A stretch of 64,000 bases of DNA from assembly GCF_000716605.1 (NCBI RefSeq), contig NZ_JNXE01000018.1, positions 62,001 to 126,000 on the forward strand. Direction: 5' to 3'. Origin of the DNA: Streptomyces sp. NRRL F-525 (GTDB taxonomy: Bacteria; Actinomycetota; Actinomycetes; Streptomycetales; Streptomycetaceae). The notes under the pieces are model-generated. The model was not told where the DNA came from. It searched no databases and saw only the letters and a program-made list of their open reading frames with translations. Of the stretch, positions 34,718-42,986 are shown one piece after another (the stretch's first letter is position 1; each line of letters starts with the position of its first letter). Both the position numbers and the translations under genes were made by a program.

Positions 34718-36154
34718 ATGTCAGACAGCTCCCCCTTGCCGCCGGTGCGGCTGCACTCCGAAGCGGAGCTGGCGCGCGACGCGCTGTCCACCCCCCTGCT
34801 CGCCCGGGCCGCCCGGCTCGCCCGCTGGACCGGCCCCGACACCCGGATCGACGCCGGTGGCAGCCTCGTAGACGAGCAGCTGCCCGCCGCTGCCGAGCTC
34901 CTCGGGCTCACCGGCGACGACGCCGCGGCCGACGCCAGCGAGGCCTGGCGGGTCGCCGTGGACACCGGGCTCGTCGAGGTCGTCGACGAGGAGGAGGGCA
35001 CCGTGACGGCCGGAGAGGAGCTGGCGCTGCTCACCTCCGGCTCGCCCGGCGACGTGCTCGCGGTGTGGCTCGGCGCCCTCGACACCCTCCTCGCGGACGC
35101 GAGCGTGCCCGATCTGGACGGTCTTGTCGACGCCATGGACGACGGCGGCGAGGTCGATTTCTCGTCACTCGACTGGGACCCCGAGGCGGAGGCCGAGTTC
35201 CTCGACGGCGTCCTCGGAAATCTGTACCTGCTGACCGTCAACGAGGAGGGCCCCGGTGACGGCCCCGTCCCGCTGCCCGCGCTGGCCGCCTCGATGATCG
35301 TGCCCAGCGACATGGGCGAGCCCACCAACGACGTCCTGGAGCAGGTCTCCGACGCGATGATGCGCCTCGACGACCAGTTCCGGCTCCTCGAACCGGTCGG
35401 CATCGTCGAGTACCAGCCCGTCGACGAGGCCCTCATGGCCGACCCCGACGAGCCGGCGGACGGCCCCGCCGCGTCCGTCGACGAGACCGACGTCACCCGC
35501 TACGGCATGGTCCGCCTCACCCCCCTCGGCCTCTATGGCCTCCGCGCCCGCCTCCTCGAAGCAGGCTTCGCCGCCCCCGCCGTAGGGGATCTCGCGGACA
35601 AGGGCGCGGACGCGCTGCTCGACGGGACGTCCGGGTTCCCGCAGCGGGCGGCGCAGGCCGAGATCGAGCAGTGGCTCGCCGGGCGTGAACCCCTCGACGC
35701 GGCACGGGAGTTGCTCGCCGCGGCCCGCGGCGGGGACTCCGGCGCACCCCTGCGCCGGCTGCTCTGCCAGCAGGCGCTCTCCCTCGTCGGCGCGGAGGCC
35801 GAGCCCGCACTGCGCGCGGTGCTCGACGACCCCGAACTGGGCGGCCTCGCCCGGGTCTGGCTGAGCGAACGCGGTGCGAGCGACGTCCCCGCGCCCTCCG
35901 AGGACCTGGTGTTCTGGCTGACCGTCGACACGGTCGCCGCGCAGCTCGCCGCCGAGGGCAACTCCGAGGAGTTGCAGGCCCTGGTCGAGGGCCTGGCCCA
36001 GCAGCACAACGGATTCTTCGCGGCGGCCTGGCGCGTCGACCACCCGGCGACCGCGGACGTCCTGGAGGCGATGGGCCGCCTGCACCCGGACAAGCGGATC
36101 GCCAAGGAAGCGCGGAAGGCGGCCTTCAAGGCCCGCTCCCAGCAAGGGAATTGA
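34718..36154 (+). CDS. Acidic conserved protein of unknown function
   Basis: A 478-residue cytosolic protein rich in Asp, Glu, Ala and Leu with only one cysteine, no signal peptide and no membrane segment. The N-terminal half contains acidic stretches (EVVDEEEGTVTAGEELALL). The C-terminal half has alpha-helical repeat character (AGREPLDAARELLAAARGG, ALRAVLDDPELGGLARVWLS, VLEAMGRLHPDKRIAKEARK), possibly HEAT-like. I do not recognise a domain. An AGGAG site precedes the ATG. The long intact frame and codon bias make it a real gene. Confidence 0.8.
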   Translation: MSDSSPLPPVRLHSEAELARDALSTPLLARAARLARWTGPDTRIDAGGSLVDEQLPAAAELLGLTGDDAAADASEAWRVAVDTGLVEVVDEEEGTVTAGEELALLTSGSPGDVLAVWLGALDTLLADASVPDLDGLVDAMDDGGEVDFSSLDWDPEAEAEFLDGVLGNLYLLTVNEEGPGDGPVPLPALAASMIVPSDMGEPTNDVLEQVSDAMMRLDDQFRLLEPVGIVEYQPVDEALMADPDEPADGPAASVDETDVTRYGMVRLTPLGLYGLRARLLEAGFAAPAVGDLADKGADALLDGTSGFPQRAAQAEIEQWLAGREPLDAARELLAAARGGDSGAPLRRLLCQQALSLVGAEAEPALRAVLDDPELGGLARVWLSERGASDVPAPSEDLVFWLTVDTVAAQLAAEGNSEELQALVEGLAQQHNGFFAAAWRVDHPATADVLEAMGRLHPDKRIAKEARKAAFKARSQQGN

Positions 36155-36257
36155 CCTGATCCACCCTGCGGGACTTTTGAGTTCCATGGGTGAGCGCATA
36201 CGGCTTCGTGGGTGATCTCTTACGGATTCATGGAAGAGGGCCCGGCGAAGTCGTCCG

Positions 36258-36279
36258 GTGTTCAACTCGTGTTCAGACA
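36258..36279 (+). promoter_or_regulatory. Pho box (PhoP-binding direct repeats)
   Basis: GTGTTCAACTC (36258-36268) and GTGTTCAGACA (36269-36279) are two adjoining 11-base direct repeats matching the streptomycete PHO box unit G(G/T)TCAnnnnnn. They lie 71 bases before the PhoX start, the usual place for phosphate-starvation activation by PhoR-PhoP. Confidence 0.75.
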
Positions 36280-36349
36280 TGGGCGGAAGCGTGGCGCCGA
36301 CCGAGGTCCGCCACCCTCCACGGCACACCCACCGTCACAGGAGACACGC

Positions 36350-37810
36350 ATGTCGCTCACCCGCAGGGATTTCACCGCCAAGTCCGCGATGACCGGTGCC
36401 GGGGTCGCGCTGGCGGGCAGCGTCGGCGCCCTCGCCACCGCGCCCAACGCCCTCGCCGCCACCGACTCCGACACCGAGTCGGCGGCGGACTACGGACACG
36501 ACCACGGACACGGGCACACCGGCGTCGGCTACGGCCCGCTGATCGCCGACCCGGACGGCCTCCTCGCCCTGCCCGCCGGCTTCAAATACCGCGTCATCAC
36601 GTACAGCGGCAGGACCAAGCTGGAATCGGGCGAGTTCACCCCCTCGAACCACGACGGCACGTCCACCTTCGACGGCCCGCGCGGCGCCACCCTCCTCGTC
36701 AACAACCACGAGCTGGCCGGCCCCCGCGCCCAGTGGCCCCACCCCGTCCCGCTCACCGAGGGCCTCGTCTACGACCCCGCCGCCGCCGGTGGCTGCACGG
36801 TCGTCGAGGTCCGCCGCGACCACGTCGCCGAGTGGGTCGGCATCGCCGGCACCGCCACCAACTGCGCGGGCGGCAACACCCCTTGGGACACCTGGCTCAC
36901 CTGCGAGGAGACCGAGGACAAGGCCGGCACCAACGGCTTCACCAAGGACCACGGTTACGTCTTCGAGGTCGACCCGGTCGACCGCCGCGCCAACCGAAAC
37001 CCCAAGCCCATCAAGGCACTTGGCCGCTACGCCCACGAGGCCGTGGTCGTCGACCCCAAGCGCGGCCACCTCTACCTGACCGAGGACGCGGCGAACCCGA
37101 ACGGCCTCCTCTACCGCTGGACCCCGCCCGAGCACTTCCACCACGGCCGCGGCAAGCTGCGCACCCTCGCCGACGACGCGGGCGTCCTCCAGGCCTTCAA
37201 GTGCTTCGACTCCGGCGGCAAGTTCATCGACGACCTCTCCCGCGCCACGAAGATCGGCACGGTCTACGGCGTCGACTGGATCGACGTCCCCGACCGCGAC
37301 GCCAGGACGACCTCCGTCCGCAAGCAGTTCGCGGCCGGCGAGGTCACCCGCGCCCGCAAGCTGGAGGGCATGTGGTGGGGTGACGGCGGCACGTACATCG
37401 TCTCCTCGTTCGCCCGCACGGAGAGCCCCGTCCAGCACGACGGCGCCGTCTGGTTCTACGACCCCAAGCGCCGCACTCTCACCCTCAAGGTCCTGATCGG
37501 CGTCAACCCGGACCCGTCCGTGGACGGCGCGTTCGACGGCCCCGACAACATCACCGTCTCTCCCTACGGCGGTCTCGTCATCGCCGAGGACGGCGAGGGC
37601 GTCCAGCACCTGTTCGGCGCGACCGAGAGCGGCCGCACGTACCCGATCGCCCGCAACGAACTCAACATCGGCACCGAAGAGAAGCCGGAGTTCAGCGAGT
37701 TCACCGGCGTGACGTTCTCGCCCGACGGCAAGACCCTGTACGCGAACATCCAGACACCGGGGATCATGCTCGCGATCACTGGTCCCTGGAAGCGGCAGAA
37801 GCGCGGCTGA
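36350..37810 (+). CDS. phoX: Tat-exported PhoX-like alkaline phosphatase
   Basis: A 486-residue exported protein of the PhoX/DUF839 family, Ca/Fe-dependent phosphatases acting on phosphate monoesters outside the cell. The N-terminus SLTRRDFTAKSAMTGAGVAL is a twin-arginine signal peptide with cleavage near APNALAA. Family motifs include LLVNNHELAGPRAQWP, NTPWDTWLTCEETED, GRYAHEAVVVDPKRGHLYLTEDA (in two parts) and MWWGDGGTYIVSSF. A Pho box upstream predicts induction in low phosphate. The start at 36350 follows AGGAG. No neighbour is in the same operon. Confidence 0.88.
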   Translation: MSLTRRDFTAKSAMTGAGVALAGSVGALATAPNALAATDSDTESAADYGHDHGHGHTGVGYGPLIADPDGLLALPAGFKYRVITYSGRTKLESGEFTPSNHDGTSTFDGPRGATLLVNNHELAGPRAQWPHPVPLTEGLVYDPAAAGGCTVVEVRRDHVAEWVGIAGTATNCAGGNTPWDTWLTCEETEDKAGTNGFTKDHGYVFEVDPVDRRANRNPKPIKALGRYAHEAVVVDPKRGHLYLTEDAANPNGLLYRWTPPEHFHHGRGKLRTLADDAGVLQAFKCFDSGGKFIDDLSRATKIGTVYGVDWIDVPDRDARTTSVRKQFAAGEVTRARKLEGMWWGDGGTYIVSSFARTESPVQHDGAVWFYDPKRRTLTLKVLIGVNPDPSVDGAFDGPDNITVSPYGGLVIAEDGEGVQHLFGATESGRTYPIARNELNIGTEEKPEFSEFTGVTFSPDGKTLYANIQTPGIMLAITGPWKRQKRG

Positions 37811-37965
37811 ACTCCCGTACGGAATTAATTGGTTGGCCCCTCCGGAGCTGTGCCTCCTACTCTGAGATCACAACAGCACGCACCTCCCGGTGCGAAGGCT
37901 GCGGCTACTTCTCTCTCAAAGAATCCACGCCGCAGCCGTTTTTGATCTCGGGAGGCGCAGCTCAT
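37811..37965 (+). other. Leader between phoX and the Y RNA, with a promoter candidate
   Basis: The stretch holds a promoter-like TTGGCC (37833-37838) and TACTCT (37858-37863), 19 bases apart. They would start an RNA near 37870. CGCACC-TCCC-GGTGCG (37879-37894) could form a small hairpin that competes with CCTCCCG (37883-37889) pairing to CGGGAGG (37949-37955). The terminator hairpin described next lies between. I see no protein gene here. Confidence 0.4.
37897..37943 (+). terminator. Hairpin with T tract: phoX terminator or small RNA end
   Basis: GGCTGCGGC (37897-37905) pairs perfectly with GCCGCAGCC (37929-37937) and is followed by GTTTTT. This is one of the few classical rho-independent terminators in the window. 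It lies 86 bases after the phoX stop, so it could end phoX, or end a small RNA from the promoter candidate near 37858. Confidence 0.65.
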
Positions 37966-38113
37966 GGTGGGTGCCCGGTGCGCAGGCAACGGTTACTTCA
38001 TTGGATCGGGCGGTTGCGGGTTCGAGTCCCGTCATCGACTTCGGGTCGGTGTAGCTCAATTGGGTAGAGCACCTGGAAAAGTCCGTCGCCGCCTCTGAAC
38101 TCGGGCACCCACC
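37966..38113 (+). ncRNA. Y RNA-like RNA (YrlA type) with permuted tRNA-mimic domain
   Basis: The two ends form a perfect 12-bp helix, GGTGGGTGCCCG (37966-37977) with CGGGCACCCACC (38102-38113). Inside is a circularly permuted tRNA. It has an anticodon-like helix 38006-38010/38072-38076, a 5-base variable loop and a T arm GCGGG-TTCGAGT-CCCGT (38016-38032). The 7-bp acceptor-like stem is closed by TTCGG (38033-38039/38045-38051). TA at positions 8-9 and a D arm GCTC-AATTGGGTA-GAGC (38054-38070) complete it. Short helices AGGC/GCCT and ACGG/CCGT link the two parts. This is the architecture of bacterial YrlA RNAs. It precedes the Ro60-like gene by 50 bases. Confidence 0.82.
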
Positions 38114-38163
38114 TTTCGCTGCGCGCTCCCTCCGAAACACCAAGGAATTCGGGGGAATTCACC

Positions 38164-39747
38164 ATGGCGCGGTTCAACACCAAGGCGGCGAAGACCCAGC
38201 CCACTTCGCGGGTCACCTCCACGGGCCGAGTACTCCGTACCTACCAGGGCGGCCGGGGCCGTGAGCGCGACGCGCGCTCCGAGCTCTTCCTGCTCGCGGT
38301 CGCCAACTTCGTTTCCCAGCAGACCTTTTACGAGTCCGGCGCCGACCGCGACGACCGCTTCGCGACCCTCGTGCGCGAGCTCGCCGTCACCGACCCGGAC
38401 TGGACGGCAGGCCTCCTCGGCTGGCTGCGCGGCGAGGGCAACCTCCGTACGGCCGCCGTCGTGGGCGCCGCCGAGTACGTGAAGGCCCGCCTCGACGCCG
38501 GCGCCACCGACGGCCCCTCGAACCGGCAGGTCGTCGACTCCGTGCTGCGCCGCCCGGACGAGCCCGGCGAGCTGCTCGCGTACTGGACCGCGCGCTACGG
38601 CCGCAACATCCCGAAGCCGGTCAAGCGCGGTGTCGCCGACGCCGTACGACGTCTCTACAGCGGTAAGTCGCTGCTCAAGTACGACACCGCGTCCAAGGGC
38701 TACCGCTTCGGCGACATCCTCAACCTCGTGCACGCGGCGCCGGACCCGGACAAGGCGTGGCAGGGCGAGCTGTTCCAGTACGCGCTGGACCGCCGGCACC
38801 ACCCGGACACCGCCGTACCGCCCGCGTCGAACCAAGTCCTCACCGCGCACCGCGAGTTGATGGCGCTGCCGGTCGAAGAGCGGCGCGCGGTCGTCACGGC
38901 GGCCGACGGCGCCGAGCGGCTCGCGGCGGCCGGGATGACGTGGGAGGCGCTGGCCGGCTGGCTCCAGGGCCCGATGGACAAGGCGGCCTGGGAGGCGGTC
39001 ATTCCGTCCATGGGTTCGATGGCGCTGGTCCGGAATCTCCGCAACTTCGACGAGGCCGGGGTCTCGGACGAGGTCGCGGCCCGGGTCGCGGCGAAGATCA
39101 GCGACCCGGCGGAGGTCGCGCGCTCGCGGCAGTTCCCGTTCCGCTACCTCGCCGCGTACCAGCACGCGCCCTCGCTGCGCTGGTCGTACCCGCTGGAGCG
39201 GGCGCTCGGCCACTCGCTGGCCAACGTGCCCGCGCTGCCGGGCCGCACGCTGGTGCTCGTGGACCGCTCGGGGTCGATGTTCCACTCCCGGCTGTCCGAC
39301 CGCTCGGAGCTCAACCGGGCCGACGCGGCGGCGATCTTCGGCACGGCGCTCGCGCTGCGGGCGGCGGACGCGGACCTCGTCGAGTTCGGTACGACGAGCA
39401 AGCGCCTCGACCTCGGCGCGGGTGAGTCGGTGCTCAAGGTCCTGGGCCGCTTCGGCGACCTGGGCGGCACCGACACCACCTCGGCGGTCCGCTCGCACTA
39501 CCGGGGCCAGGACCGGGTGCTGATCATCACCGACGAGCAGGCTTCGTACAGCCACTACGGCGACCCGACCGAGCAGGTCCCGGCCGGCATCCCGGTCTAC
39601 ACCTGGAACCTCGCCGGGTACCGAGCGGGCCACGGCCCGTCCGGTACGGCGAACCGGCACACCTTCGGCGGCCTCTCGGACGCGGCCTTCCGGATGGTGC
39701 CGCTGCTGGAGGCGGCCCGGGACGCGGACTGGCCCTGGGCGGCTTGA
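38164..39747 (+). CDS. rsr: TROVE-domain protein, bacterial Ro60 (Rsr)
   Basis: A 527-residue RNA-binding protein orthologous to Ro60. The N-terminal 340 residues form the HEAT-like TROVE ring (RVLRTYQGGRGRERDARSEL, NFVSQQTFYESGADRDDRF, WLRGEGNLRTAAVVGAAEYV). The C-terminal von Willebrand A domain has an intact MIDAS motif in LVLVDRSGSMFHS (DxSxS) and a later GGTDTTSAVR. Ro60 proteins bind Y RNAs and misfolded RNAs in stress and RNA decay or maturation. The adjacent Y RNA is its expected partner. An AAGGAATTC stretch lies before the ATG. Confidence 0.93.
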   Translation: MARFNTKAAKTQPTSRVTSTGRVLRTYQGGRGRERDARSELFLLAVANFVSQQTFYESGADRDDRFATLVRELAVTDPDWTAGLLGWLRGEGNLRTAAVVGAAEYVKARLDAGATDGPSNRQVVDSVLRRPDEPGELLAYWTARYGRNIPKPVKRGVADAVRRLYSGKSLLKYDTASKGYRFGDILNLVHAAPDPDKAWQGELFQYALDRRHHPDTAVPPASNQVLTAHRELMALPVEERRAVVTAADGAERLAAAGMTWEALAGWLQGPMDKAAWEAVIPSMGSMALVRNLRNFDEAGVSDEVAARVAAKISDPAEVARSRQFPFRYLAAYQHAPSLRWSYPLERALGHSLANVPALPGRTLVLVDRSGSMFHSRLSDRSELNRADAAAIFGTALALRAADADLVEFGTTSKRLDLGAGESVLKVLGRFGDLGGTDTTSAVRSHYRGQDRVLIITDEQASYSHYGDPTEQVPAGIPVYTWNLAGYRAGHGPSGTANRHTFGGLSDAAFRMVPLLEAARDADWPWAA

Positions 39748-39754
39748 GAGGCAA

Positions 39755-39793
39755 GGTGTGGCCCGCACTTTCACGGGGAGTGCGGGCCACACC
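39755..39793 (+). terminator. Terminator of rsr
   Basis: GGTGTGGCCCGCACT pairs perfectly with AGTGCGGGCCACACC over a 9-base loop, 8 bases after the rsr stop. It is followed by CTTGTCC. The 15-bp stem is strong enough to isolate rsr from the GntR gene. Confidence 0.8.
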
Positions 39794-39828
39794 CTTGTCC
39801 ACGTGGGCGCACCCTTGCCCGACCGAGG

Positions 39829-39857
39829 ATTGACATCTAACATTTCAGTTCATGAAC
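39829..39857 (+). promoter_or_regulatory. TTGACA box and GTTCATGAAC palindrome at the gntR start
   Basis: TTGACA (39829-39834) lies 18 bases before the start codon, and the perfect 10-bp palindrome GTTCATGAAC (39848-39857) contains the ATG at 39852. If TTGACA is a minus-35, the minus-10 would fall inside the gene, so it may instead be part of an operator. Both suggest compact autoregulation. Confidence 0.35.
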
Positions 39858-40499
39858 GCCCTACGGCCCGTCCCGCGCACCCTCCTCCGCGACCGCGCCT
39901 ACGAAGCGATCCGCGACGCCATCGTGGCCGGGGACATCGAGCCCGGGGCGGTGGTGCGGGACGCCGATCTCGCCGAGCGGCTCGGGCTGTCGCGGGCGCC
40001 GGTGCGGGAGGCGTTCTCGCGGCTGGTGGAGGAGGGGCTGCTGGAGAGCAAGCCGCAGAGCTACACCCGGGTGACGCCGGTCGTGGCCGCCGAGGTACGG
40101 GACGCCGCCGCCGTCGTCGGGGCCATGCACGAGTTGGTGACCCGGGTCGCCGTACCCCTCTTGCGCGACACGGACGTCGACGTCATGCGCGCGGCCAACG
40201 ACCGGTTCGCCGCCGCCGTGCACGCCGGTGACGTGGACGCGGCCCTGCGCGCCGACGACGAACTCCACGACGTCCTGGTGCGGGTGAGCGGCAATCGCGC
40301 CGCCGCCGCCACCGTCGCCCGCTACACCCCGCTCATCCGCCGACTGGAGCGACGACGCTTCGGCGAGGGCGGCTCCTGCCGTTCGGCCGGGCTGCACGAG
40401 CGGCTGATCGAGGCCTGCGCGGACGGTGACACGGACGGTGCGGTCCGCGTCACGGCCGACATCTGGCACACCCTCGCGGACCTGACCGATGCTGACTGA
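39852..40499 (+). CDS. GntR-family (FCD) regulator next to ACC deaminase
   Basis: A 215-residue regulator. The N-terminal winged helix is at residues 10-75 ([40 protein letters not shown]) and the C-terminal FCD effector domain has the expected metal-binding residues ([27 protein letters not shown]). Its stop lies 14 bases before the acdS start with a GGAGG site between. It very likely controls acdS, with an amino or organic acid as ligand. Confidence 0.88.
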
Positions 40500-40512
40500 C
40501 CCTGGAGGTCTC

Positions 40513-41529
40513 ATGTCCCTTTCCTCGTACGACCGTTACCCCCTCCTCTTCGGCCCCTCGCCCGTCCACCCGCTGGAGCGCCTCACCGCCCACCTCGGCG
40601 GCGCCTCGATGTGGGCCAAGCGCGAGGACTGCAACTCCGGTGTCGCGTACGGCGGCAACAAGACCCGCAAGCTGGAGTACCTCGTCGCCGACGCCCTCGC
40701 GAAGGGCTGCGACACCCTCGTCTCGATCGGCGGCGTGCAGTCCAACCACACCCGCCAGGTCGCGGCCTGTGCCGCCCGTGCCGGGCTCAAGTGCGTGCTG
40801 ATCCAGGAGAGTTGGGTGGAGTGGCCCGACTCCGTCTACGACAAGGTCGGCAACATCCTGATCAGCCGCCTCGCCGGAGCGGACGTACGCCTGGTGAAGG
40901 CCGGGTTCGGCATCGGCTTCAAGGAGAGCTGGGAGCAGGCGCTGCGGGAGGTCGAGGAGAGCGGCGGCAAGCCGTACGCCATCCCGGCCGGCGCCTCCGA
41001 CCACCCGCTCGGCGGCCTCGGCTTCGCCAACTGGGCCCACGAAGTCGCCGAGCAGGAGCGGGAGTTGGGCGTCTTCTTCGACACCGTGGTGGTGTGCTCG
41101 GTGACCGGCTCCACCCAGGCGGGCATGGTCGCCGGGTTCCGCGCGATCGAGGAGGCGGGCGGCCGCGAGCGCCGGGTGCTCGGCATCGACGCCTCGGCGA
41201 AGCCCGCCGAGACCCGCGAGCAGGTGGCCCGTATCGCGCAGGGCACCGCCCAACTGATCGGCGTCAAGCGCGAGTTGACCCTCGACGACGTCGAACTCGA
41301 CGACCGCTACCACGCCGGCGTCTACGGCATCCCGGACGAGACCACCCTGGAGGCGATGCGCCTCGCCGCCCGCACCGAGGGGATGGTCACCGACCCCGTG
41401 TACGAGGGCAAGTCCATGGCCGGGATGATCGACCTGGTCGCCCGGGGCGAGATCGCCGCCGACTCCACGGTGCTCTACGCCCACCTCGGCGGCCAGCCCG
41501 CGCTGGACGCGTACAGCGCGCTGTTCTAG
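40513..41529 (+). CDS. acdS: 1-aminocyclopropane-1-carboxylate deaminase
   Basis: A 338-residue PLP enzyme that splits ACC, the plant ethylene precursor, to 2-oxobutyrate and ammonia. The PLP lysine is K50 in [15 protein letters not shown]. The residues that separate true ACC deaminases from D-cysteine desulfhydrases are present: Y297 and the following Glu in DPVYEGKSM and L325 in YAHLGG. The total length equals the Pseudomonas enzyme. The start ATG 40513 follows CTGGAGG. The gene suggests interaction with plants or use of ACC as nitrogen source. Its TAG overlaps the stop of the convergent MFS gene. Confidence 0.9.
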
Positions 41530-42986
41530 GCCGACTCCCGGGCGCCCTCGGCCCGTTCGGGTTTCCTGCCGGTGATCACGAACGCCGAGACCAGCAGTGC
41601 GGTCAGGGCGATCAGCGCGCCGACGCCGAACGCGCGGGCCGAGCCGTGGACGAGGATCTCGGACGGTGACCCGGTCGCGTGCCGGGTCGCCGTGCCGAAC
41701 ACCGTGACCAGGATGGACAGTCCGAGGGTGCCGCCGAGCCACTGGAGGGTCTGGAGGAGGCCCGACGCGGCGCCCGCCTCGCGGGGTTCGATGCCCGCGA
41801 GGATCGTCGCGTTGAGCGGCATGAAGCTGAGTCCGACACCCACGCCCAGCAGAAGCAGCGGGCCCAGCAGCCCGGTCAAGTAGCCGTCGTCCGCGCGGAG
41901 TTGCGACAGCCATGCCGCCGATACGGCGAGCAGCGCCATGCCGGTGAGCAGCACCGGCTTGGCGCCGAAGCGGGCCAGCAGCCGGGGCACGAAACGCACG
42001 ACCGTGAACAGCGCCAGTGTCATCGGCAGGAAGGCGAAGCCCGCGCGCAACGGGCTGTAGTCCAGGACCCGTTGGCTGATCAGGGTGAGGAAGTAGAACG
42101 CGCCGAACATGCCCGCCGGCAGCAGCAGGACGCCCGCGTAGCCACCCGCGCGGTTGCGGTCCGCGAACAGCCCCAGCGGCATGATGGGTTGGGCGGCGCG
42201 GGACTCGACCACGGTGAAGCCCGCCAACAGGGCCGCCGCGCAACTGAACCCCAACTGCGCCTGCATGTCGCCCCATCCGTCCGACGAGACCCGGATGAAC
42301 GCGTACACCAGCGAGGTCATCCCGGCGGTGCCGGTGAGCGCGCCCGCCGCGTCGAACCGGCCCGCGTGGCGCGGGGGTTCGGCGACGAAACGGGGGAGGG
42401 CGGTGGCCACCGCGATGCCGATCGGCACGTTGATCAGCAGGGCCCAGCGCCAGGACGCCCAGGAGGTCAGCATGCCGCCGATGACCAGGCCTATCGAGGC
42501 GCCGATGCCGGCCATGGAGGTGTAGATGCCGAGCGCGTGGTGACGGCGCGGGCCCTCCGGGAAGTTGGTGGTGATCAGGGCGAGCGTGTTGGGTGCGATG
42601 AGCGCGGCGCCCATGCCCTGCAGCGCGCGGGCCGCGAGCAGCCAGGCGCTGTCGGTGGCGAGTCCGCCGAGCAGGGAGGAGGTCGCGAAGAGCAGGACGC
42701 CGATCGTGAGCGTACGGCGGCGGCCCACGATGTCTCCGACCCGGCTGCCCAGCAGAAGCAGCCCGCCGAAGGCGAGCGTGTAGGCGTTGAGGACCCAGGA
42801 CAGCCCGGTGGGGCTGAAGCCGAGGTCTTTCTGGATGTCCGGCAGCGCGACGTTGACGACGGTGGAGTCGACGCCGACCATCAGATAGGCGGTGACGACG
42901 GTGAAGAGGACGGTGCCGAGCCTGGCGGGTCGGGGCGGTGCGGAGAGAGGATCGACGGTGGTGGACGGTGCGGACGGGGTGGACAT
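41526..42986 (-). CDS. MFS drug exporter, DHA2 (14-helix) type
   Basis: A 486-residue membrane protein of the EmrB/QacA group with 14 hydrophobic helices. The DHA2 motifs are visible: [16 protein letters not shown] (helix 1), [20 protein letters not shown] (motif A after helix 2), [15 protein letters not shown] (motif C-like) and NVPIGIAVA. It is divergent from the TetR gene and shares its operator region. I used the ATG at 42986 (MSTPSAPS) since the frame upstream runs into the operator. Substrate unknown. Confidence 0.9.

What the first reader, a model, noticed from the sequence alone, without database searches (positions are those of the whole stretch)
37966..39747. Y RNA with a permuted tRNA-mimic domain encoded beside a Ro60-like gene
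The sequence shows a perfect 12-bp terminal helix enclosing a complete tRNA-like fold in permuted order. It has a T arm with TTCGAGT, a closed acceptor stem with a TTCGG loop, bases TA at positions 8-9, a D arm, a 5-base variable loop and a five-pair anticodon-like stem. Directly downstream is an intact TROVE/vWA protein. Bacterial YrlA RNAs with Rsr are an established pairing. What is unusual is a clean copy in a streptomycete, next to a phosphate-starvation gene, in a lineage where Ro-Y complexes are hardly studied. The RNA could gate access of exoribonucleases such as PNPase to structured RNA during development or stress.
Basis: partly seen in the sequence, partly recalled or inferred. Interest (0 to 1): 0.85.

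Follow-up and report, generated by a model that had tools for sequence, protein, structure and literature searches.

The report
Tandem Y RNAs with swappable tRNA-like heads
Just before a bacterial Ro60-like gene this Streptomyces genome encodes two small Y RNAs, one carrying a rearranged tRNA look-alike; in related species the same RNA slot carries a look-alike of a different tRNA class, so these RNAs seem to be built from exchangeable heads on one protein-binding stem.

Summary
37966-38113 folds as a permuted tRNA on a 12-bp stem and lies 50 bases before an intact Rsr (Ro60-like) gene. Rfam YrlA matches at 45 bits, E 8e-8, below its 69-bit cut-off. The structure covaries across 42 loci, and the head is called a tRNA once its halves are put back in order.

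A second Y RNA without a tRNA-like head lies at 37881-37957. In the 80 closest relatives kept plus the window (81 loci) both slots are found in all. A third Y RNA stands in front in 56 of 81. The head of the reported RNA is a class I tRNA mimic in 42, tRNA-Leu-like in 37 (29 with a longer variable region; a covarying variable-arm helix counted in 28) and absent in 2. The rsr tree needs at least 19 changes between the two kinds. Rfam did not report the Leu-like form in the five loci scanned. Other Streptomyces carry Y RNAs away from rsr with Glu-like or Ser/Tyr-like heads.

I conclude: real Y RNAs, a known kind, in a modular variant I did not find described. The main Y RNA papers were not readable here. 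Binding, expression and function are inferred.

The parts
37881..37957 (+). Y-B: second Y RNA, without tRNA-like head. End helix 37883-37889/37949-37955, middle stem 37897-37905/37929-37937, small head hairpin
   Evidence: Fold z about -4.9; found in 81 of 81 loci; 21 pairs, 95.1% of cells paired, 7 pairs with changes on both sides in 66 of the 68 non-minimal copies. No Rfam match
37966..38113 (+). Y-C: the reported YrlA-type Y RNA
   Evidence: Rfam YrlA 45 bits, E 8e-8, below gathering; found in 81 of 81 loci; covariation
37966..37977 (+). 5' strand of the end helix of Y-C; pairs with 38102-38113
   Evidence: 12 perfect pairs; 93.8% of cells paired in 42 rows
37985..37992 (+). 5' strand of the middle stem of Y-C (one A-C mismatch); pairs with 38083-38090; followed by TACTTC
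   Evidence: 99.7% of cells paired for the 7 pairs counted
38006..38076 (+). Permuted class I tRNA-like head: anticodon-like stem, variable loop, T arm, closed acceptor stem, bases 8-9, D arm, anticodon-like stem
   Evidence: ARAGORN calls it a tRNA after rejoining, not in native order
38164..39747 (+). rsr: Ro60-like protein of 527 aa, TROVE and vWA regions, motif DRSGS
   Evidence: Pfam TROVE 48.7 bits; profile match to 2nvo and 1yvp
38145..38160 (+). Inverted repeat GAATTC-GGGG-GAATTC just before the rsr start codon
   Evidence: Exact in 75 of 81 loci, with another spacer in 1
36212..37810 (+). phoX-family gene upstream (neighbour)
   Evidence: Pfam PhoX 351 bits; upstream in 75 of 80 relatives

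Best explanation
37881-38113 encodes two tandem Y RNAs, probably made from one transcript that runs on into rsr and then cut or trimmed apart (inferred). Each has the same lower module: a GC-rich end helix, an internal loop with GGUGCG on the 5' side, a middle stem and the sequence UACUUC. This module binds the Rsr ring (inferred from homology). What sits on top differs. Y-B ends in a small hairpin and would be a plain gate or stabiliser of Rsr. Y-C carries a permuted tRNA mimic that docks a partner recognising the tRNA elbow, most likely PNPase or a tRNA-handling enzyme, so that Rsr handles substrates with a partner chosen by the head. Shown by sequence: the modules, their conservation and covariation, and the exchange of heads between species. 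Inferred: expression, processing, binding and function.
For: Both RNAs found in 81 of 81 loci before rsr. Covariation of both and of the Leu-like form. Shared lower module with exchanged heads. Heads rejoin to tRNAs in 130 of 135. Rsr profile matches solved Rsr and Ro60. In the genome the core pattern matches perfectly only at these two RNAs. Reviews describe Rsr on the basal stem and PNPase on the tRNA-like domain (passages).
Against: No expression or binding data. Rfam score below its cut-off. NCBIfam's Rsr equivalog model does not match the protein. Two of 81 loci have a Y-C without tRNA-like head, so the head is dispensable in some species. The tree is of rsr alone and of the closest 80 of 251 relatives. 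Within each head kind, head distance follows rsr distance about as well as pieces of rsr do.
Confidence: 0.6

Rival explanations
1. The heads are baits or decoys for enzymes that act on particular tRNAs (anticodon nucleases, modification enzymes, attack by phage or toxin). The tRNA type copied then matters, and heads are swapped under shifting selection.
For: At least 19 changes between class I and Leu-like heads on the rsr tree. Leu-, Glu-, Gln- and Ser/Tyr-like D arms on the same stem. Y RNA arrays beside ro in two Streptomyces phages, inside tRNA clusters. The authors of PMC7790460 propose the tRNA-like domain as a possible competitive inhibitor of an anticodon nuclease (passage).
Against: Class I heads cannot be assigned to one tRNA (median margin 0); margins for the Ser/Tyr-like heads are only 0-4. 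The anticodon loop is missing, so an anticodon nuclease would lack its site. No partner is known.
Confidence: 0.2
2. Cis role: the RNAs are a structured leader through which Rsr controls its own messenger, and they do not act as free RNAs.
For: Y-C ends 50 bases before the rsr start; an inverted repeat around the probable ribosome-binding site is conserved in 75 (+1) of 81.
Against: The same module occurs at 18 places with no rsr in the roughly 2.1 kb fetched. A tRNA elbow kept by compensatory change is not needed for a leader. A partial cis role alongside is not excluded.
Confidence: 0.15
3. tRNA pseudogenes or a chance match.
For: Tandem tRNA genes can mimic the Rfam profile (39.3 bits for a tRNA-Asn pair).
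Against: ARAGORN finds no tRNA in the window. The order is permuted with a closed acceptor stem; 130 of 135 rejoined heads are called tRNAs, 0 of 135 in native order. Stems are kept by compensatory changes.
Confidence: 0.03

Closest known systems
YrlA, bacterial Y RNA with a tRNA-like domain (Rfam RF02553; Salmonella, Mycobacterium smegmatis)
   Same: Permuted tRNA-like domain on a basal stem, gene beside rsr; whole-model match at 45 bits
   Different: Score under the family cut-off. It is one of two tandem Y RNAs, and in 37 of 81 loci the same slot holds a Leu-like head, which Rfam did not report in the five loci scanned
Salmonella rsr-yrlBA-rtcBA operon (PMC7790460, passages)
   Same: Two Y RNA genes with one rsr
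   Different: Here the Y RNAs precede rsr, and the five other genes scanned around it are not rtc genes
Deinococcus radiodurans Rsr with Y RNA and PNPase (RYPER; described in reviews)
   Same: Rsr-type protein (profile E 1e-13 to 2nvo)
   Different: No contact with PNPase tested; arrangement and heads differ
Ro-like genes of Streptomyces phages BRock and Alone3
   Same: About 52% identical protein, preceded by 4 and 5 Y RNA motifs, some with tRNA-like heads
   Different: Inside phage tRNA clusters; other heads

Membership tests
YrlA (RF02553) | Permuted tRNA-like domain (T arm, closed acceptor, D arm) on a basal stem | tested here: met
YrlA (RF02553) | Rfam gathering score of 69 bits | tested here: not met
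   45 bits. This is a curators' score, not a biological feature; of 14 control genomes 7 gave a match but none over the cut-off. I call the RNA YrlA-type, not an Rfam member
YrlA (RF02553) | Gene adjacent to rsr | tested here: met
   also in the 80 relatives
Bacterial Y RNA | Bound by Rsr through the lower stem | not testable with these tools
   Needs pull-down or binding assay
YrlA (RF02553) | Modified by TruB and a dihydrouridine synthase | not testable with these tools
   Known for YrlA from PMC8394870 (passage); here only the T loop and D loop sequences are seen
Ro60/Rsr protein | TROVE domain | tested here: met
   Pfam 48.7 bits, cut-off 23; best stretch short, residues 273-332; profile match to 2nvo and 1yvp
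Ro60/Rsr protein | vWA metal-site motif DxSxS | tested here: met
   D367, S369, S371 invariant in 15 proteins; that this is the metal-site motif is recalled
Ro60/Rsr protein | Y RNA-contacting residues (Xenopus K170, H187) | tested here: inconclusive
   K172 and H190 align with them and are invariant in 15; their role is recalled
NCBIfam Rsr equivalog NF041674 | Curated cut-off of 900 bits | tested here: not met
   No NCBIfam match for the window protein at E 0.001
RYPER-type complex | Y RNA tethers PNPase to Rsr | not testable with these tools
   Needs biochemistry

The most novel reading that the evidence does not exclude
Ro complexes in actinobacteria and their phages use a combinatorial set of Y RNAs: one Rsr-binding stem carrying exchangeable permuted mimics of different tRNAs (generic class I, class II Leu-like, Ser/Tyr-like, Glu-like, Gln-like), encoded in arrays of up to five beside rsr and as genes of their own elsewhere. 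The tRNA type copied decides which tRNA-acting enzyme or attacker the complex engages, and heads change repeatedly because that target changes.
Probability: 0.25. Interest if true: 0.88.

Novelty: new variant of a known kind. Interest (0 to 1): 0.62.

Why it matters
What the tRNA-like domain of bacterial Y RNAs is for is, as far as I know, open. Closely related Streptomyces that keep a similar Rsr and stem but carry heads from different tRNA classes are a natural domain-swap experiment: they allow a direct test of whether the tRNA type, or only the L-shaped elbow, matters. Rfam did not report the Leu-like form in five loci nor the Glu- and Ser/Tyr-like forms in 11 loci, so Y RNAs are probably under-counted.

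Tried and rejected
Rejected: Y-B as an intrinsic terminator. In the window its hairpin is followed by GTTTTTGA, but most relatives have GACTTGA and the like there. Rejected: the second Rfam hit in the genome as another YrlA; it is a tandem tRNA-Asn pair. Not found: a third Y RNA elsewhere in this genome; the core pattern matches perfectly only at the two RNAs here, and probes for the Glu-like and Ser/Tyr-like forms gave only short or mismatched hits, one of them Y-B itself. Not done: a formal promoter test; none is claimed. Structure prediction of Rsr was not obtained.

Weak or contrary results: the Mantel test does not show that heads move freely. Within a kind, Y-C distance follows rsr distance (r 0.46 and 0.34), against 0.35-0.60 for 145-nt pieces of rsr; the mixed set is 0.24, Y-A 0.33, Y-B 0.13. 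One of five measures for Y-B is not above shuffles (296 of 500). The tree is of rsr alone, from the closest 80 of 251 relatives, so exchange of the whole locus between species is not separated from exchange of heads. In the looser ARAGORN test on Y RNAs away from rsr, of other genera and of phages, 18 of 18, 16 of 33 and 4 of 5 sequences with a T-loop motif were called tRNAs, and 3 of 75 native-order sequences were too. The 675 shuffled sequences gave no cuttable head, so they test the geometry rather than ARAGORN itself. The D arm alone named only 23 of 41 real tRNAs correctly. Some neighbours counted as missing may be so because the fetched locus is short.

Rows dropped: A2 uses 28 of 29 Leu-like heads with the longer variable region (L063 left out, inner duplication); A3 uses 66 of 68 non-minimal Y-B copies (L061 and L082 left out by oversight); the Mantel tests of Y-C leave out L063. 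One row mis-cut (L062) was corrected.

Full report
WHAT IS THERE. The window holds, on the + strand, a PhoX-family gene (36212-37810), two RNAs (37881-37957 and 37966-38113) and an Rsr-type gene (38164-39747), followed by GntR and PLP-enzyme genes and, on the other strand, an MFS transporter gene. Rfam gives one match in 36000-42000, YrlA, 45 bits, E 8e-8, under the gathering score of 69. A pair of tandem tRNA-Asn genes elsewhere in this genome reaches 39.3 bits with the same model, so I did not rest the case on that score.

THE PROTEIN. Pfam TROVE matches at 48.7 bits. A profile of 15 relatives matches two chains named TROVE domain-containing protein (9kop, 9l5y; E 2e-52), D. radiodurans Rsr 2nvo (E 1e-13, positions 54-464) and Xenopus Ro60 1yvp (E 3.4e-11). 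K172 and H190, invariant in the 15, align with Xenopus K170 and H187; that those residues touch Y RNA is recalled. NCBIfam's Rsr equivalog does not match the window protein.

RELATIVES. The genome collection gave 251 stretches encoding a relative of Rsr; the best 80 were kept, all Streptomyces. With the window that is 81 loci. In the 520 bases before rsr, fuzzy anchors found Y-B in 81 of 81, Y-C in 81 of 81 and a third RNA, Y-A, in 56 of 81; the window lacks Y-A. Y-B is reduced to 28-33 nt in 13. Y-C was reclassified after correcting one mis-cut row (L062): class I head 42, Leu-like 37 (29 with a longer variable region, 8 with a short one), no head 2 (L019, L052). None of the 42 class I heads has the longer variable region. 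In a separate draw, 79 of 150 Streptomyces genomes match a covariance model made from the Leu-like form, the window's RNA included at E 1.9e-26; the model also finds class I and other Y RNAs, so this counts Y RNAs and not Leu-like heads. Of 246 genomes of the phylum 8 match, 7 of them Streptomyces. Rsr itself: 37 of 296 genomes of the class.

STRUCTURE. Class I Y-C (42 rows): 40 pairs, 97.4% of cells paired, 13 pairs with changes on both sides, 0 of 500 shuffles as high on any of five measures; slid structures pair 35-51%. Leu-like Y-C (28 of 29 rows): 43 pairs, 98.1%, 15 pairs with changes on both sides; the variable-arm helix has them in 5 of 5 pairs. Y-B (66 of 68 rows): 21 pairs, 95.1%, 7 pairs; the count of extra pair types is not above shuffles. 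Joined back into tRNA order with a dummy loop, 41 of 42 class I, 28 of 29 and 8 of 8 Leu-like and 53 of 56 Y-A heads are called tRNAs by ARAGORN; native order 0 of 135; 675 shuffled sequences gave no cuttable head.

WHICH tRNAs. Against 54 distinct tRNAs of the window's genome, the D arm of 36 of 37 Leu-like heads is nearest to tRNA-Leu, with median margins of 17 (longer variable region) and 14 (short); the long variable arm agrees with class II. Class I heads are ambiguous (20 Trp, 16 Lys, 6 others; median margin 0). The D arm alone named 23 of 41 real tRNAs correctly, so only large margins count. At E 0.1 Rfam does not report YrlA at the Leu-like Y-C in L003, L012, L036, L046 or L063, though it reports Y-A in four of these five; in L036 a 17-base tmRNA match of 15.8 bits, far below its cut-off, falls inside Y-C.

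HEAD EXCHANGE. On the rsr tree, class I against Leu-like needs at least 19 changes. For the class I label alone the count is 20, of which well-supported branches force 14, against a shuffled mean of 27.3. Presence of Y-A needs 12 changes and the short Y-B 8. Between pairs with close rsr genes identity drops at the head: L067/L078 are mostly 95-100% upstream and 52-87% over the head; L013/L046 fall to 52-54% at the head, with a further drop just before rsr. Some of the 11 pairs compared also differ in Y-A. T arm and acceptor sequences are alike in the two kinds, so part of the head may be shared by recombination or constraint. Within a kind, head distance follows rsr distance, so exchange is probably mostly between near relatives.

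BEYOND THIS LOCUS. In other genera the same stem carries arrays; L104 and L106 show five Y motifs before rsr, with Gln- and Glu-like D arms among them (margins 4-8). Secondary model hits in Streptomyces: of 20 places that I picked from the list and fetched, 18 have no rsr in about 2 kb. Ten of these have a D arm nearest to Glu (margins 3-12), six a Ser/Tyr-like one (margins 0-4; L216 read by eye), two are other. In five of the Ser/Tyr-type loci the same kind of open frame follows; the one tested, L212, is primosomal protein N'. Rfam reports nothing in 11 such Streptomyces loci at E 0.05. I found none of these in the window's genome. Streptomyces phages BRock and Alone3 carry a ro gene about 52% identical, within tRNA clusters, preceded by 4 and 5 Y motifs.

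MECHANISM. From reviews (passages): the basal stem holds Rsr, the tRNA-like domain docks PNPase in a degradation machine, and YrlA is modified by TruB and DusA. I infer the same division here: a fixed Rsr stem, and a head that chooses the partner. Y-B, with a mere hairpin, may only gate or stabilise Rsr. Against a purely cis role stand the copies away from rsr. Whether tRNA type matters is the open and testable point.

LITERATURE. In the listings of searches I saw no paper on Streptomyces Y RNAs or on class II tRNA mimicry by Y RNAs (one search returned none for the two terms together). Passages were read in PMC8394870, PMC7790460, PMC4726728, PMC8628891, PMC9569102, PMC3997798 and PMC13191466; none was read whole. 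PMC9569102 predicts yrlA in some mycobacteria, and PMC4726728 cites M. smegmatis Y RNA. The primary Y RNA papers (Chen 2013, Chen 2014, Wang 2018, Sim and Wolin 2018) are not held, so I cannot say that the variant is unpublished.

Noticed in passing
38145-38160: Inverted repeat GAATTC-GGGG-GAATTC directly before the rsr start, exact in 75 of 81 loci and with another spacer in 1; it may pair and cover the ribosome-binding site.
   Followed up: partly
L185 929-1500 and L186 791-1500 (Streptomyces phages BRock and Alone3): Arrays of 4 and 5 Y RNA motifs before phage ro genes, inside tRNA clusters.
   Followed up: partly
L186 1274-1347: The annotated phage tRNA-Ser(gct) begins at the start of the fifth Y RNA motif (1275), so it may be a mis-annotated Y RNA; Rfam tRNA scores 29.5 bits there.
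   Followed up: no
L210, L212, L216, L219, L222: Y RNAs with Ser/Tyr-like heads directly before a conserved open frame, identified in L212 as primosomal protein N'.
   Followed up: partly
L209, L211, L213-L215, L217, L218, L220, L223, L228: Y RNAs with Glu-like heads and no rsr in the fetched stretch; in several of those printed a GC-rich inverted repeat like a terminator follows.
   Followed up: partly
G018, G182, G261: Three of the genomes with a match have a second rsr-like gene, 62-68% identical to the window's; the stretches before them were fetched (L177-L179) and show Y motifs.
   Followed up: partly
L019 and L052: Y-C without a tRNA-like head in two relatives, while Y-A with its head is kept.
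   Followed up: no
L185 3579-3742, L186 3467-3699: manA RNA-like matches (49.7 and 47.8 bits, below the cut-off of 55.2) downstream of phage ro.
   Followed up: no
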